From Kordiimonas sp. SCSIO 12603 (lineage in GTDB: Bacteria > Pseudomonadota > Alphaproteobacteria > Sphingomonadales > Kordiimonadaceae): 64,000 nucleotides of DNA. Location of the stretch: NCBI RefSeq assembly GCF_024398035.1, contig NZ_CP073748.1:1034001-1098000 (forward strand), in the 5' to 3' direction. Position numbers and translations under genes: made by a program. The notes under the pieces were generated by a model. It saw only the letters and a program-made list of their open reading frames with translations, made no database searches and had not been told where the DNA came from. The first letter of the stretch is position 1. Every line of letters begins with the position of its first letter. Shown piece after piece: positions 44,481-49,857 of the stretch.

Positions 44481-45638
44481 TCAGGCTTCAATGATGTGGG
44501 GTAAAAACCGTGAAAGATCTTTTGTTATGGGGCTTTTATCTTCCCTTATCGCCATTCCAGCGGGTTCGTCGCCTACAATCCAGCTACCAATCACGGTGTG
44601 ATTATCATCAAATTGTGGAAGTGGGTGAAGGCGTTGGTAAATATAACCTTCTTCGCCATACTCCCCATCAGCGCTTTCTATAACGTCACCATTTTCCATG
44701 ATGCTAACATTTGCGCCCTCGCGGGAAAATATGGGTTTTTTGACAAAAGAAGATCCTAACTCTTCGCTGTTATCAGAAAAACTAGCGGGTAATAAATTAG
44801 GATGCCCCTTGTTGAATTCCCATATAAGTGGGAGGAGTGCCTTATTGGAAAGCACAGCTTTCCATGCGGGTTCTAGGAACATTACATCGCTTGGTAGTAA
44901 GAACTTGGAGTAAACCTCTCTGAGCATATCTTCCCAGGGGTACAGTTTGAACAGGCTTTGTATCAGCGCACCATTATGATCAGCAAATTCACCAGCCGTA
45001 TTAACACCAATATCTTCAAGATATGTGAAATGAGGGAAGTGACCAGCCTGTGCAGCACAATCTTCAATATAGCGAACAGTTTGTCTGTCTTCATCGGTTC
45101 CTTTGCAGGAAGAGAAATGAATATGGCTGCCTTTTTCAAACAGCCTTTCAAATCGGCTGATTAGCTTTTCCTGTATAGAATTATATTGATCTGTTTCGTC
45201 AGGAAAGTCTCCGCATTCAATTTTATCATCCAGCCATAACCACTGAAAGTATGCGCTTTCATAAAGTGATGTTGGTGTGTCTGCATTAAATTCCAGCATT
45301 TTTGCTGGGCTAGTGCCATCGTAACTAAGGTCAAACCTACCGTAAAGTGATGGGTCTTTTGCATGCCAACTGGTGGCGATTACATCCCACATATCCTTAG
45401 GGATGGCTAGTTTAGTTAAAAGTTCTTCGCTGCGTACGGCACGGTCTACCACATCAAGGCACATTGTATAAAGCTCTGCGCTTGGGTCTTCGATGTGATT
45501 TTCAACTTGTTCCAGAGTAAAGCTGTAATAGGCACGTTCGTCCCAATATTGTTCCCCATACATGGTGTGGAAGATAAAGCCGAGTTGTTCGGCTTTATCC
45601 TTCCAATCAGGCCGTTCAGCCGTTTGTATACGCTTCAT
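44481..45638 (-). CDS. Glutathionylspermidine synthetase-like ATP-grasp ligase (YjfC/YgiC type)
   Basis: The 385-residue protein consists only of the GSP-synthetase C-terminal domain and lacks the amidase half found in E. coli Gsp. Family landmarks are WDERAYYSFTLEQVE near residue 33, the ADTPTSLYESAYFQW loop, FVKKPIFSREGANV, and the C-terminal GSWIVGDEPAGMAIRED. These ligases join a carboxylate to an amine using ATP. The substrate of YjfC/YgiC members is not established. It begins eight bases after the PspA-like gene and is clearly part of the same operon. A polyamine or peptide modification linked to membrane stress is an inference. Confidence 0.88.
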   Translation of the reverse strand: MKRIQTAERPDWKDKAEQLGFIFHTMYGEQYWDERAYYSFTLEQVENHIEDPSAELYTMCLDVVDRAVRSEELLTKLAIPKDMWDVIATSWHAKDPSLYGRFDLSYDGTSPAKMLEFNADTPTSLYESAYFQWLWLDDKIECGDFPDETDQYNSIQEKLISRFERLFEKGSHIHFSSCKGTDEDRQTVRYIEDCAAQAGHFPHFTYLEDIGVNTAGEFADHNGALIQSLFKLYPWEDMLREVYSKFLLPSDVMFLEPAWKAVLSNKALLPLIWEFNKGHPNLLPASFSDNSEELGSSFVKKPIFSREGANVSIMENGDVIESADGEYGEEGYIYQRLHPLPQFDDNHTVIGSWIVGDEPAGMAIREDKSPITKDLSRFLPHIIEA

Positions 45639-45646
45639 GGATCAAG

Positions 45647-46315
45647 TTAGAGTTTCGAAAGAAAGTCGTCAGTGTCGCTTTTGCCGCCGTCAAGAGCAGC
45701 TAATTCGCTATCCAGTGATGTGCCGGACAGAACGTCATCTAATTCGTTCGCTGCTTCAAGGCGTGCTGCCTTTTCTGCCTGACGAGCTTTCAGGCGGTCT
45801 AGTGATTGGGATGCATCAGAAAAGCTGTTGTTCACATTGGCATGGCTTGATGCCAACATTTCCTGTGATTTCTGCATTTGTTCTGTTGCTTTTACTGTAT
45901 CCACCTCAGCGCGCATACGTTCTTTTTTGGCGGTAAGTGCTTTGATGTTGTTGCGAATATTATTTTCGGCTGTTGCATATTGATCGCGTAACGCAGTTGC
46001 TGCTTTCAAATCACCCTGAAGTCCCATTACGCGCTCCGCAGCCTGACGAGCCAGGTCCATATTTTCGGCAGCTTTCGCTTTGCGTGCGCCATCCGTATAT
46101 TTTTCGATATCTACCTCAATATCGCTGATTTTCTTGTCTTGCAGATTGCGTTTTGCAGCCATGGAGGTGAGGCTCTTCTTGGATTCCTCAAGGCTTTGAT
46201 CGCATTCGCGAAGTAGCTGGTCTAGTTCCGTAAGTGCATTCGCATCTGCAATTGCTTCACCAGCTTCATTTACGTGGCCTTTAACAACTGTAATCAAACG
46301 TTTGAAAATACTCAT
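45647..46315 (-). CDS. PspA/IM30 (ESCRT-III-like) membrane-remodelling protein, YjfJ type
   Basis: The 222-residue protein is almost wholly alpha-helical coiled coil. It starts MSIFKRLITVVKGHVNEAGE, an amphipathic helix of the PspA type. It continues through heptad-rich helices rich in K, E and Q, and ends in an acidic DDFLSKL tail. PspA/Vipp1 proteins polymerise on damaged inner membrane. Its position between a DUF2170 gene and a GSP-synthetase-like gene identifies it as the YjfJ branch rather than the classical PspA of pspABC. CGGAGC precedes the ATG. Confidence 0.9.
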   Translation of the reverse strand: MSIFKRLITVVKGHVNEAGEAIADANALTELDQLLRECDQSLEESKKSLTSMAAKRNLQDKKISDIEVDIEKYTDGARKAKAAENMDLARQAAERVMGLQGDLKAATALRDQYATAENNIRNNIKALTAKKERMRAEVDTVKATEQMQKSQEMLASSHANVNNSFSDASQSLDRLKARQAEKAARLEAANELDDVLSGTSLDSELAALDGGKSDTDDFLSKL

Positions 46316-46350
46316 GAGATTGCTCCGGTTATTCTTTTCTTATTATGGGC

Positions 46351-46989
46351 TTAGGCAGCGTTTGCTACTTCAACGAATGCAGATACGACTTCTTCATAAT
46401 TTTCAGCAAGGGCTGCAATTTCTGTTGCAACACTTGTTAATAATGAGCGGGAAGAGAGTGCGCCAAACAATTCGTAATAGTCCTGACCGTTAATCGTTGT
46501 AATGCCAATTGTGCTGAGAGGCAGATATTTGTGTGCTTTCAGAAGTTGTTCGTTCAAAGCGGTTTGGTCTGCAACGTCTGCGATTGGGCAAATCAGGAGC
46601 GAAACAAGAATTTGTTCGCCGTGGACTGCCATGATAGCTGTGCGGTCTAGGTCAGTGTATGTAATTTCAATAGAAGGGTTCATACCTTCCACGAGCTTGA
46701 GGCTGATCGCGTCCTGATCGAATAAATCAGAAGAGCTGAGTTCTTCGAAAAGTGCTTTGGCTGTCCATGGTGATACATCAGTCATGAAGTTAGATCCCTT
46801 GCTTGTCATCATTTCTTGCGTAAGTGTATGGGGTGGGAAAACACAGATGGCAGAACCTTCTCTTAGGGCTGGTTCCGTATCTTTTAGTTGCTTTTTCATG
46901 CGCTCAGGCACATATACTTCTACTTTATGAAGGTTTTTCTCCTTCATAAGTTGCCTTCTGCGTGTAGCTGCATTTGTCTTTGCGGGCAT
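46351..46989 (-). CDS. DUF2170 protein (YjfI type) with basic N-terminal extension
   Basis: A 212-residue protein from the ATG at 46989, which has AAGG upstream. Residues about 8-45 are strongly basic (TRRRQLMKEKNLHKVEVYVP), resembling a short ribbon-helix-helix-type DNA-binding segment. The rest is a DUF2170 domain, including VLISLLICPIA-like strands and a Leu/Ala-rich C-terminal helix. E. coli YjfI is the first gene of the yjfIJKLMC set. The arrangement suggests a regulator or adaptor for the PspA-like protein downstream, which is an inference. The longer start at 47016 is less likely. Confidence 0.8.
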   Translation of the reverse strand: MPAKTNAATRRRQLMKEKNLHKVEVYVPERMKKQLKDTEPALREGSAICVFPPHTLTQEMMTSKGSNFMTDVSPWTAKALFEELSSSDLFDQDAISLKLVEGMNPSIEITYTDLDRTAIMAVHGEQILVSLLICPIADVADQTALNEQLLKAHKYLPLSTIGITTINGQDYYELFGALSSRSLLTSVATEIAALAENYEEVVSAFVEVANAA

Positions 46990-47129
46990 CTGCCTTTTCT
47001 TCCGATATCTTTTCAATTTGTGATCGATAAATTGAAAATAATGTTCGCGAACCCCTTTCGCGAATTAAATATATGTGTTAAGCGGTAATTGTGCAACCCT
47101 AAATGGGTTATTTTTTCGGGGAGGAAATT

Positions 47130-48167
47130 GTGTCCGCACTTGGGGTGCTTTTTTCAAAGATTTATTTAAAGTGCGTTGAGCTCGATTGGTCTGTTCTCGC
47201 GCTTGTTGCCGTGCTTCATTATATGGCTAGTTATTTCGGTTTTATGATGCTGGGCGAGGCCGGCTTGTTGGCTGATGGCGTGTTTGCTTACTATTATTTC
47301 ACCACTGTTTCGACAGTGGGGTACGGCGATTACAGCCCTGTTTCTGAGAGTGGCCGGCTATTCTTTATTCTATTCATGCTGCCAGGTGGTTTAACTATTT
47401 TTACCGTTGTTCTTGGTAAGGCTGTGAGTGGGTTTTCTCAATATTTTAAAAAAAAGGCGAACGGCATGGGTGATTACTCAAAGCTTGAAGGCGCTACTGT
47501 TATTGTGGGCTATCACCCTCAGCGTACCCGTAAAATGGTGGCGGAAATTAAGGCTGGTTCAAATGGTGATGATACGCCACTTGTTCTTATAAGTAAGAAA
47601 GATGTGCCAAGTAATCCTGATTGGCGATTTATCAAAACGGAAAGCCTATCAAGTTTTGATGATCTCAAGCGTGCTGCAGTAGAATATGCCGCCCGTGTTA
47701 TCGTTTATGCAGATACCGATGATCTTACGCTTGCTGCGGTACTTGCGGTGCGAGCACTGAATAAAGACGCACATGTAGTGTGTTTCTTTTCAAGTGCTGA
47801 GAAAGCGCAGCTGTTGGGTAGTAACTGTGATGCAGAGATCGTGGTTTCTTCCAGTGTGGAAATGGTTGCACGCGAACTTACAGATCCTGGTTCAAACGCG
47901 TTTTTATCGGATTTGATGTCAGCGCAGAGCGGCGTGGCAGCATTTCGAATGGATGTACCTGAAGGAGAAGCAGGTATTTCAAGAACGCAACTTTCAAAGG
48001 AATTAATTGAAAAGGCAGGAGCTACACTGATTTCTGTGAAGCCAAAAGAAGTTGCACAACCAATTTACGATCCCAGATCTATAAAAGAATTACATGCTGG
48101 CGATACTTTCTTTTACATCGCTGACAAACGATTAGATCCTAACGATATTAATTGGCGAGGAGCATAA
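47130..48167 (+). CDS. Two-TM potassium channel with TrkA-N (RCK) domain
   Basis: The 345-residue protein has TM1 at about residues 20-42, a pore loop with the potassium selectivity filter TVGYGD (62-67) and TM2 at about 74-100. A cytosolic RCK/TrkA-N domain follows (from VIVGYHPQRT), ending in a TrkA-C-like portion. I chose the GTG at 47130, preceded by GGGGAGG, over the ATG at 47103. It leads the rightward half of the divergent stress locus and is followed one base later by the DUF2491 gene. A K+ channel in a yjf-type set is not found in E. coli. Confidence 0.9.
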   Translation: MSALGVLFSKIYLKCVELDWSVLALVAVLHYMASYFGFMMLGEAGLLADGVFAYYYFTTVSTVGYGDYSPVSESGRLFFILFMLPGGLTIFTVVLGKAVSGFSQYFKKKANGMGDYSKLEGATVIVGYHPQRTRKMVAEIKAGSNGDDTPLVLISKKDVPSNPDWRFIKTESLSSFDDLKRAAVEYAARVIVYADTDDLTLAAVLAVRALNKDAHVVCFFSSAEKAQLLGSNCDAEIVVSSSVEMVARELTDPGSNAFLSDLMSAQSGVAAFRMDVPEGEAGISRTQLSKELIEKAGATLISVKPKEVAQPIYDPRSIKELHAGDTFFYIADKRLDPNDINWRGA

Positions 48168-48168
48168 A

Positions 48169-48807
48169 ATGGGGTTGTTTGATTTTTTCAAAAACAAAAA
48201 AGACGAGATGAAAGAACCTGTGTTGCCGGTTATTCACGATATTTCCTTTGGTCGCACAGTAGTGATTGATCCTTTGGCGATTTCTCTTCTGGGCGCGGAT
48301 CACCGAATGAAATTATCTACACCTTCATTAACGATAACGGGGCAAGGCACGGTACCATTTGAAGACGGCGTATGGTTACACCGTTTTTATACGGATAATC
48401 ATGAATTACTTCAGATCATGGGTGGTGATGGCAAGCATGATTTTGGCGTGCAGCAAATCAGCCTGTTTAGTGTTTACGACAGTATTGAACCTGCAAATGA
48501 AGCGGCGCTTGAGGCAGAAATTGCAAAGTTGAAAGCGGATACCTACACACTGGATGGTGTTGAATATAAGCGTGTTTGGTTTGATGGGGATGGCCCGACA
48601 GAGCCTGTACAGTTTCATGAAACTGTTTATCTGGATGAAGGTGGTGCGGAAAATTATGGGATTCAACAGCAATGCATGTTGTTTGGTCGCGAAGTGGATG
48701 GGCAAGAAGAAAGCTTGCTTGTAACACATGAAAAAACAGATCAAGGGGATGAGAGCGTGACGTTGATGGTCGGCGCCGTTCTTTCTCCTAATGATATTTC
48801 AATCTAG
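48169..48807 (+). CDS. DUF2491 protein (YjfK type)
   Basis: A 212-residue soluble protein. It opens with MGLFDFFKNKK, a short amphipathic start, followed by a beta-rich body typical of DUF2491/YjfK. The function is unknown. GAGGAG precedes the ATG. The gene begins one base after the channel stop and 17 bases before the DUF350 gene, so translation is likely coupled. Membrane association through the N-terminal helix is plausible. Confidence 0.82.
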   Translation: MGLFDFFKNKKDEMKEPVLPVIHDISFGRTVVIDPLAISLLGADHRMKLSTPSLTITGQGTVPFEDGVWLHRFYTDNHELLQIMGGDGKHDFGVQQISLFSVYDSIEPANEAALEAEIAKLKADTYTLDGVEYKRVWFDGDGPTEPVQFHETVYLDEGGAENYGIQQQCMLFGREVDGQEESLLVTHEKTDQGDESVTLMVGAVLSPNDISI

Positions 48808-48824
48808 GGAAAGTAACGAGGTAA

Positions 48825-49244
48825 ATGATGATGGATGTAATCTATGATTCAGTTGAGGGGGTGCTCCCGTTTCTAATGTATTTCGGTGCAGCAATTGTGG
48901 CGTTAGCTGCTTTTGCACGGATATATAGCTGGGTAACTCCTTATGATGAAGTTGAGCTTATTAAGAATAATAATCCGGCAGCTGCTACAACATTTGTGGG
49001 TGCAATGCTGGGGTTTGGTATCCCGGTTTATAGCGCGCTTGATAACTCGTTAAGTCTGATTGATTTTGCGGTTTGGGCCACCATTGCGCTGGTTGTTCAG
49101 GTATTAACGTTCGTTCTGCTGCGTAAGCTTGTGTATCCAAAACTTGTTGAACGTATTGAGCAAGGTGAAATCGCTGCCGCTATTAAAATTGCAGGTGTTT
49201 CAATTGTTGTTGGCCTGATTAATGCGGGCAGCATGACATATTAA
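48825..49244 (+). CDS. DUF350 membrane protein (YjfL type)
   Basis: A 139-residue integral membrane protein with about four hydrophobic segments (near residues 13-33, 50-72, 78-98 and 112-135). This is the DUF350 layout, with KNNNPAAATTFVGAMLGFGIP as the recognisable core. The function is unknown; the family recurs beside PspA homologues and GSP-synthetase-like ligases. Three in-frame ATGs open the gene, after AACGAGGTAA. Confidence 0.85.
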   Translation: MMMDVIYDSVEGVLPFLMYFGAAIVALAAFARIYSWVTPYDEVELIKNNNPAAATTFVGAMLGFGIPVYSALDNSLSLIDFAVWATIALVVQVLTFVLLRKLVYPKLVERIEQGEIAAAIKIAGVSIVVGLINAGSMTY

Positions 49245-49254
49245 GAGGTGAATT

Positions 49255-49857
49255 ATGAAGAGAGCTAAAAAACTTTCCCTCACCTTGATGGCCGTTGGTA
49301 GTGCTACAACGCTTGCAGCCTGTGGTGATGGCGATAAACGGGAAGAGGTTGAATCCTATAAAGACCTTGAGAGTTGCCTTTCTGCTGGAGTGTTCAGCGA
49401 TCAGCAGTGCGAGGATGCTTACGATAAGGCAAAGGAAACTCATGATAGCAGTGCGCCGCGTTATGATAAGGTCGGTCTGTGTGAAGAGCAATTTGGTGTA
49501 GGGCAGTGTGAGCAACGTACAAATCATAATGGCGGGTCGTTCTGGTCACCATTTTTTACCGGCTATATTATTTCCAGCTTGTTAAACCAACCTTCCTATG
49601 GTGGCGGTTATTATTCTACACCTTATTATCAAACACGCTATGGCCGTAGGGCTACGTGGAACGGTGACTATATTAAAACCTATAGGGATTCGAATGGCCG
49701 TATCCAACACCGTGTGAATAAGGAATCGTTCCAGAAACCGAAACCAGCAAAAGTATTGAACCGCACAGCAGTGATTTCCCGTGGTGGGTTTGGCACTCGT
49801 CCAAAGGCCAGAGCTTCAAAAAGCCGAAGTCGAGGTGGTCGCAGTTGGGGTGGTTAA
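49255..49857 (+). CDS. DUF1190 lipoprotein (YjfM type)
   Basis: A 200-residue exported lipoprotein with lipobox TLAAC (Cys about 21). A conserved cysteine-containing region (ESCLSAGVFSDQQCEDAYDKA) is followed by a low-complexity Gly/Tyr/Ser-rich middle and a basic Arg/Gly-rich tail ending SRGGRSWGG. This fits DUF1190/YgiB-like lipoproteins, whose function is unknown. It is the last gene of the rightward operon, with a strong terminator 13 bases after it. Confidence 0.85.
   Translation: MKRAKKLSLTLMAVGSATTLAACGDGDKREEVESYKDLESCLSAGVFSDQQCEDAYDKAKETHDSSAPRYDKVGLCEEQFGVGQCEQRTNHNGGSFWSPFFTGYIISSLLNQPSYGGGYYSTPYYQTRYGRRATWNGDYIKTYRDSNGRIQHRVNKESFQKPKPAKVLNRTAVISRGGFGTRPKARASKSRSRGGRSWGG

What the first reader, a model, noticed from the sequence alone, without database searches (positions are those of the whole stretch)
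44481..49857. Divergent PspA / ATP-grasp ligase / K+ channel locus: a rearranged yjf-type membrane-stress system
Seven genes flank a short divergent gap. Leftward are DUF2170, PspA/IM30 and a GSP-synthetase-like ligase; rightward are a TVGYGD potassium channel, DUF2491, DUF350 and a DUF1190 lipoprotein. The gene set matches E. coli yjfI-J-K-L-M-C, but split into two operons and joined by a channel. A PspA polymer, a membrane DUF350 protein, an amide-forming ligase and a potassium channel suggest a response that seals or remodels the inner membrane, adjusts K+ flux and makes a modified peptide or polyamine. That function is inferred and, as far as I know, not established.
Basis: partly seen in the sequence, partly recalled or inferred. 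Interest (0 to 1): 0.82.

Follow-up and report, generated by a model that had tools for sequence, protein, structure and literature searches.

The report
PspA stress locus with spermidine ligase
This is a known kind of bacterial membrane-stress gene cluster in the divergent layout usual for its class, and comparing many genomes suggests that its ligase attaches the polyamine spermidine to the tail of the neighbouring envelope lipoprotein, which can be tested directly.

Summary
The seven genes are real, intact and correctly named. The set, including the K+ channel, is not a new assembly: Ravi et al. 2024 (PMC11237479) describe it as a CesT/Tir-PspA, ATP-grasp ligase, K+ channel, DUF350, DUF1190, DUF2491 group. 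In 57 loci holding the six core genes, 41 have the channel. All 31 from the window's class are divergent and all 26 others are one operon, so the split layout is the alphaproteobacterial form. The ligase belongs to the E. coli YgiC/YjfC family, titled 'peptide-spermidine ligases'; its natural acceptor is unknown to me. New here: DUF1190 lipoproteins beside these ligases carry a conserved flexible tail, RGGFG plus a C-terminal Gly-Gly (48 of 66 non-redundant; shuffled expectation 4; 0 of 7 without a ligase). Where no DUF1190 is recognised, the neighbouring ORF usually still has the tail (24/28 motif, 18/28 motif plus GG), against 0/14 beside true glutathionylspermidine synthetases. I propose that this tail is the ligase's acyl substrate. 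The divergent gap carries a palindrome, and the DUF2170 protein has a possible DNA-binding N-terminal extension, suggesting shared autoregulation. No biochemistry was possible. Main difficulty: the ligase needs cytosolic ATP while the lipoprotein is exported.

The parts
44481..45638 (-). YgiC/YjfC-type ATP-grasp acid-amine (peptide-spermidine) ligase, 385 aa, no amidase domain
   Evidence: PF03738 510.6 bits; best solved relatives E. coli YgiC 7uk8 (491 bits) and YjfC 7uk6 (452 bits); R101, D103, E116, N118, K260, K266, K301, R306, R365 and E366 invariant in the 11-sequence alignment
45647..46315 (-). YjfJ-type PspA/IM30 protein, 222 aa
   Evidence: PF04012 109.5 bits; second PspA paralogue of the genome, the first lies in a separate pspF/pspA/pspB/pspC-like locus
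46351..46989 (-). YjfI/BacA-type DUF2170 protein, 212 aa, CesT-like domain plus N-terminal extension of possible DNA-binding (MazE-like) kind
   Evidence: PF09938 126.2 bits; AlphaFold model matches BacA 8q8o, TM 0.89 by target length; extension matches MazE-like above cut-off only in relative L047 (22.9 vs 22), weakly in L080 (14.2)
46990..47102 (.). divergent intergenic region shared by both operons
   Evidence: lies between the start of the DUF2170 gene and the ATG of the channel gene
47044..47064 (.). inverted repeat TTCGCGAACCCCTTTCGCGAA, candidate operator
   Evidence: conserved in the same-genus relative L080 (GTCGCGAACCTCTTTCGCGAA); none of 60 shuffles of the stretch scores as well
47103..48167 (+). 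K+ channel with a TVGYGD filter and a C-terminal RCK/TrkA-like region, 354 aa
   Evidence: PF07885 37.7 bits; TrkA_N 20.9 bits, below cut-off
48169..48807 (+). YjfK-type DUF2491 protein, 212 aa
   Evidence: PF10679 149.9 bits
48825..49244 (+). YjfL-type DUF350 membrane protein, 139 aa
   Evidence: PF03994 139.8 bits
49255..49857 (+). YjfM/YgiB-type DUF1190 lipoprotein, 200 aa: lipobox LAAC23, four invariant Cys, flexible tail
   Evidence: PF06693 126.3 bits; core residues about 31-100 and 121-160 pLDDT about 92-97, last 30 residues about 53
49777..49854 (+). DUF1190 C-terminal tail SRGGFGTRPKARASKSRSRGGRSWGG, proposed ligase substrate
   Evidence: RGGFG motif and terminal GG are the most conserved features of DUF1190 apart from the cysteines

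Best explanation
The locus is the divergent, alphaproteobacterial form of the known yjf/PspA-ligase envelope-stress system. Proposed working: (1) the DUF2170 protein, CesT-like domain plus an N-terminal extension, binds a palindrome in the shared gap and controls both operons; (2) the ATP-grasp ligase activates the C-terminal Gly-Gly carboxylate of the DUF1190 pre-lipoprotein and joins it to spermidine, recognising the RGGFG tail; (3) the lipoprotein, now with a polycationic tail, is exported to the envelope; (4) PspA and the DUF350 protein act at the inner membrane and the RCK-type channel adjusts K+. Shown here: gene set, conservation, layout rule, tail-ligase association, spermidine genes in the genome, palindrome. 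From literature: family title of the ligase, PspA membrane remodelling. Inferred: steps 1-4.
For: Set already described (PMC11237479). 57 six-gene loci; 31 of 31 in the window's class divergent, 26 of 26 others single operon. Ligase: 491 bits to YgiC, RefSeq product 'peptide--spermidine ligase'. DUF1190 tail: 48 of 66 non-redundant proteins next to a ligase end in GG, shuffles give 4.1 on average and 12 at most; 62 of 66 have G[FYL]G; 0 of 7 without a ligase have either. In an alignment with 19% mean identity the invariant columns are four Cys, both Gly of GFG, and G199. Test on ligases without a recognised DUF1190 neighbour: motif in an adjacent ORF in 24 of 28, motif plus GG in 18 of 28; 0 of 14 beside bifunctional glutathionylspermidine synthetases. 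Tail predicted flexible. The genome encodes AdoMet decarboxylase and spermidine synthase. Precedent: spermidine joins the LGG-COOH end of SUMO and ubiquitin (PMC12270671). Palindromes: 10 of 16 loci with the DUF2170 extension against 5 of 37 without.
Against: The ligase needs cytosolic ATP while DUF1190 has a lipobox and conserved cysteines, so modification would have to precede export. About a quarter of non-redundant tails do not end in GG (mostly in Ser). Gene association does not show catalysis; the tail could be a structural or sorting element that merely travels with the ligase. The loci are not phylogenetically independent, so the P values are optimistic. The N-terminal extension gives no family match in the window's own protein. 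No expression data.
Confidence: 0.5

Rival explanations
1. The ligase makes a small polyamine-peptide metabolite (for example a glutathionylspermidine-like compound), and the GG tail of DUF1190 is an envelope-binding or sorting element unrelated to catalysis.
For: Relatives GspSA and trypanothione synthetase act on glutathione (one search lists them as homologues). DUF1190 is exported while the ligase is cytosolic (lipobox; YgiB listed as lipoprotein in PMC3210124).
Against: True glutathionylspermidine synthetases have no such neighbour (0 of 14), whereas YgiC/YjfC-type ligases nearly always do, even where the DUF1190 fold is no longer recognisable.
Confidence: 0.27
2. The ligase joins the DUF1190 tail carboxylate to another amine (a protein lysine, an aminolipid or another polyamine) and so makes a cross-link or tag rather than a spermidine amide.
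For: ATP-grasp amidoligases accept varied amines (general knowledge); the tail evidence concerns the acyl side only.
Against: The E. coli homologues are titled peptide-spermidine ligases (reference; product names), and the genome makes spermidine.
Confidence: 0.13
3. One reading: one response in which PspA seals the membrane and the channel adjusts K+, with the ligase and DUFs as accessories and no specific ligase-lipoprotein pair.
For: Channel in 41 of 57 loci; PspA family remodels membranes (cited in PMC12492005).
Against: The channel is missing in 16 of 57 loci, E. coli among them, while the ligase-tail pair also occurs without PspA (ygiBC; DUF350-tail-ligase loci).
Confidence: 0.1

Closest known systems
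CesT/Tir-PspA, ATP-grasp, K+ channel, DUF350, DUF1190, DUF2491 group of Ravi et al. 2024 (mSystems, PMC11237479)
   Same: Identical seven families, channel included
   Different: Described there as an operon; here two divergent operons with the ligase on the PspA side. The tail, the palindrome and the DUF2170 extension are not mentioned in the passages read.
E. coli yjfIJKLM-yjfC
   Same: Six of the seven families
   Different: No channel, single operon, YjfI of 133 aa without the N-terminal extension
E. coli ygiB-ygiC
   Same: DUF1190 ending in GG next to the same ligase family
   Different: No PspA, DUF2170, DUF2491, DUF350 or channel; downstream of tolC
Pseudomonas aeruginosa bac system, BacA/BacB (PMC10948618)
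   Same: DUF2170 plus PspA pair; BacA is the closest solved structure of the window's DUF2170 domain
   Different: The families of the other bac genes were not compared here
Bifunctional glutathionylspermidine synthetase/amidase (2io7) and trypanothione synthetase (2vob)
   Same: Same synthetase superfamily; conserved blocks align
   Different: The window protein lacks the amidase domain, scores far higher with YgiC/YjfC, and sits near a tail protein that true GspSA loci lack
SUMO/ubiquitin-spermidine conjugation (PMC12270671)
   Same: Spermidine joined to a protein C-terminal Gly-Gly with ATP
   Different: E1/E2 enzymes in eukaryotes; works-like comparison only, no homology

Membership tests
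Ravi et al. 2024 CesT/Tir-PspA plus ATP-grasp group | DUF2170 (CesT/Tir) and PspA adjacent | tested here: met
Ravi et al. 2024 CesT/Tir-PspA plus ATP-grasp group | GSP-synthetase-related ATP-grasp ligase, K+ channel, DUF350, DUF1190, DUF2491 together | tested here: met
Ravi et al. 2024 CesT/Tir-PspA plus ATP-grasp group | all genes in one operon (how the group is described; I treat it as layout, not as a defining feature) | tested here: not met
   two divergent transcription directions; the same in all 31 loci of the window's class
YgiC/YjfC peptide-spermidine ligases | full-length sequence relationship without amidase domain | tested here: met
   491 and 452 bits over the full length; 385 aa
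YgiC/YjfC peptide-spermidine ligases | conserved candidate active-site residues | tested here: met
   R101, D103, E116, N118, K260, K266, K301, R306, R365, E366 invariant in the 11-sequence alignment; their catalytic role is from memory of GspS structures
YgiC/YjfC peptide-spermidine ligases | ligation of spermidine to a peptide | not testable with these tools
   needs biochemistry
Bifunctional glutathionylspermidine synthetase/amidase | N-terminal amidase domain | tested here: not met
   only GSP_synth over residues 12-383 of 385
Canonical PspF-PspABC system | pspB/pspC next to pspA and divergent pspF | tested here: not met
   absent at this locus; a pspF/pspA/pspB/pspC-like locus lies elsewhere in the genome (read from sequence)
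DUF1190 (YgiB/YjfM) lipoproteins | Pfam PF06693, lipobox, four Cys, RGGFG and C-terminal GG | tested here: met
MazE-like/ribbon-helix-helix DNA-binding (DUF2170 extension) | family match of the N-terminal extension | tested here: inconclusive
   no match in the window protein, 14.2 bits in L080, 22.9 (cut-off 22) in L047; monomer model shows helices 7-17 and 29-43

The most novel reading that the evidence does not exclude
YgiC/YjfC-type ATP-grasp ligases are dedicated protein-tail modifiers: they amidate the C-terminal Gly-Gly of a partner envelope protein carrying an RGGFG recognition motif with spermidine, a bacterial protein-polyamine conjugation widespread in Pseudomonadota (GSP_synth-family ligases in 101 of 398 sampled genomes, true GspSA included).
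Probability: 0.45. Interest if true: 0.87.

Novelty: new member of a known kind. Interest (0 to 1): 0.62.

Why it matters
The natural acceptor of YgiC/YjfC is, as far as the held library shows, unknown, and DUF1190 has no established function there. If the tail is the substrate, a reaction known as an activity with peptides becomes a dedicated protein modification of envelope lipoproteins, present in E. coli K-12 twice (ygiBC, yjfMC) and so easy to test. It would explain the recurrent link of PspA systems to polyamine genes as covalent decoration rather than polyamine sensing.

Tried and rejected
Channel as an addition peculiar to this genome: rejected, 41 of 57 loci have it. Divergence as a peculiarity of this genome: rejected, it holds in 31 of 31 loci of the class. 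Tails of the other cluster proteins as ligase substrate: PspA, DUF2491, DUF2170 and channel C-termini show no shared terminal motif of this kind (by eye); DUF350 ends in a conserved segment that I did not pursue. GG as a by-product of a Gly-rich tail: rejected by shuffling. DUF1190 fold search in the PDB: no match with E below 0.001. A DUF2491 alignment was too diverse for the genome scan, so the ligase was used. TIGR01047 (nspC) is absent from the genome; the AdoMet decarboxylase route is present instead. Pederick 2023 is not in the held library and Iyer et al. 2009 (ATP-grasp amidoligases, recalled from memory) did not come up in any search, so whether they already propose DUF1190 as substrate could not be checked.
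Full report
OBSERVATION. The window holds the seven genes as described. Leftward: DUF2170, PspA, GSP-synthetase-like ligase; rightward: K+ channel, DUF2491, DUF350, DUF1190 lipoprotein. All Pfam matches pass their cut-offs except the TrkA_N part of the channel (20.9 vs 23.8 bits). The DUF2170 gene most likely starts at ATG 46989, giving 212 aa with an N-terminal extension.

ALREADY KNOWN. Ravi et al. 2024 (PMC11237479, section 19) describe this set, channel included, as the third group of CesT/Tir-PspA neighbourhoods and suggest that it links envelope stress to polyamines. E. coli yjfIJKL was upregulated in strains evolved to grow at 45 C (PMC12492005). The ligase's nearest solved relatives are E. 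coli YgiC and YjfC, named peptide-spermidine ligases in RefSeq and in the title of Pederick et al. 2023, which I know only from its citation. The DUF2170 domain matches the BacA crystal structure.

CONSERVATION AND LAYOUT. Loci were gathered by DUF2491, DUF2170, DUF1190 and ligase searches and scored with profiles built from the window proteins. Of 57 loci with all six core genes, 41 have the channel. All 31 from the window's class (named ones: Sphingomonas, Brevundimonas, Caulobacter, Labrenzia, Pseudovibrio, Rhizobium) are divergent, with the ligase on either side; all 26 others, gammaproteobacterial where named, are single operons. The set is rare and patchy: DUF2491 in 9 of 289 genomes of the class and 32 of 398 of the phylum, DUF2170 in 6 of 201 genomes of the order. 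In the one other genome of the window's genus that has DUF2170, all seven genes are together in the same layout (L080).

THE TAIL. DUF1190 proteins have a lipobox, four invariant cysteines and a Ser/Gly/Arg-rich tail with RGGFG and a terminal Gly-Gly, usually after an aromatic residue. Among 66 proteins non-redundant at 60% identity beside a ligase, 48 end in GG; shuffling the last 25 residues gives 4.1 on average and at most 12 in 2000 trials; 62 of 66 have G[FYL]G. Seven DUF1190 proteins with no ligase nearby have neither (Fisher P = 0.0003). Four second DUF1190 paralogues downstream of ligases (L138 twice, L232, L234) do not end in GG either; they are counted among the 66. In the 48-sequence alignment (mean identity 19%) the invariant columns are C41, C52, C76, C85, G178, G180 and G199. 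E. coli YgiB and YjfM both end in GG. The AlphaFold model has a confident core and a flexible tail.

TEST ON LOCI NOT CHOSEN FOR THE TAIL. Two ligase loci from the genome scan and 26 ligase loci from a sample of 398 genomes had no DUF1190 neighbour recognised in the first searches. In 24 of 28 an adjacent ORF carries the GGF-type motif near its end, and in 18 it also ends in GG. Six have the motif but end otherwise (L244, L245, L247, L248, L249, L279); four have none (L258, L259, L274, L277). These small proteins are lipoproteins or have an N-terminal membrane segment, and several have lost recognisable DUF1190 similarity. Fourteen bifunctional glutathionylspermidine synthetases, whose acyl substrate is glutathione, have no such neighbour (0 of 14). 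Fisher P is 4e-5 for motif plus GG and 6e-8 for the motif. Limits: the loci fall into fewer lineages (five or six come from one genus of family f145, five from family f167), the motif was read with slightly different patterns, the GspSA loci were examined with the pattern only, and the final tally was by eye.

MECHANISM. In glutathionylspermidine synthetase the glycine carboxylate of glutathione is activated with ATP and joined to spermidine (established knowledge). A protein ending in Gly-Gly next to a ligase of the same superfamily is the natural candidate for the acyl substrate, with RGGFG as possible recognition element. Spermidine is available: AdoMet decarboxylase (PF01536, 180.5 bits) and spermidine synthase (217.8 bits) lie side by side in the genome. 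Spermidine addition to a protein LGG-COOH is known for SUMO and ubiquitin (PMC12270671). The weak point is topology: ATP is cytosolic and the lipoprotein is exported, so modification would precede translocation. What the cationic tail does, for example contact with anionic lipid or LPS, is speculation.

CO-REGULATION. The gap contains TTCGCGAACCCCTTTCGCGAA at 47044-47064, kept in L080. Loci whose DUF2170 has the N-terminal extension tend to have a palindrome in a fixed stretch upstream of it: in 10 of 16 at most 2 of 60 shuffles score as well, against 5 of 37 without the extension (the counts are mine from the printed table, the two classes were measured from slightly different anchors, and relatives are not independent). 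Examples: TTCATGTTACGCGTAACATGAA (L065), TTACATGTAACACTTGTTACATGTAA (L211), ACATACGCGTATGT (L070). The extension resembles MazE-like antitoxins in L047 (22.9 bits, cut-off 22) and weakly in L080; the window's own protein gives no match. Shared autoregulation of the two halves is therefore plausible but not shown. The BacA study calls BacA a possible regulator but crystallised 139 residues and does not mention DNA binding.

VERDICT. The locus is a new member of a described kind in the layout usual for its class. The interest lies in the tail-ligase association, which gives a concrete and easily tested substrate for an enzyme family with an unsettled natural role.

Noticed in passing
genome G000:C1 about 1832400-1834200 (L238): AdoMet decarboxylase of Pfam family PF01536 directly upstream of spermidine synthase in this alphaproteobacterium; from memory PF01536 is the mainly eukaryotic type.
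   Followed up: partly
G000:C1:3729000-3746000 (L083): Separate canonical-looking psp locus: sigma54-activator-like pspF divergent from pspA, pspB-like and pspC-like ORFs. The genome thus has two PspA systems.
   Followed up: partly
L049 7822-10670; L053 7090-10772; also L050-L052: In other alphaproteobacteria DUF2491 is the C-terminal part of a protein of about 500 aa or more, followed by DUF350; in L049 and L053 a coiled-coil protein that reads like PspA but matches no PspA model comes next. A possible further PspA-like arrangement.
   Followed up: partly
L240-L243, L278 (family f145) and L251-L253, L275, L276 (family f167): Very small membrane-anchored proteins (about 100-130 aa where the start is clear) beside the ligase that keep little of DUF1190 except the RGGFG...GG tail.
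   Followed up: yes
L138, L232, L234: Second, tail-less DUF1190-like ORFs just downstream of the ligase.
   Followed up: no
window 48825-49244 and DUF350 of the other loci: DUF350 proteins end in a strongly conserved segment at the very C-terminus (for example LINAGSMTY here, LLNAACMTY elsewhere).
   Followed up: no
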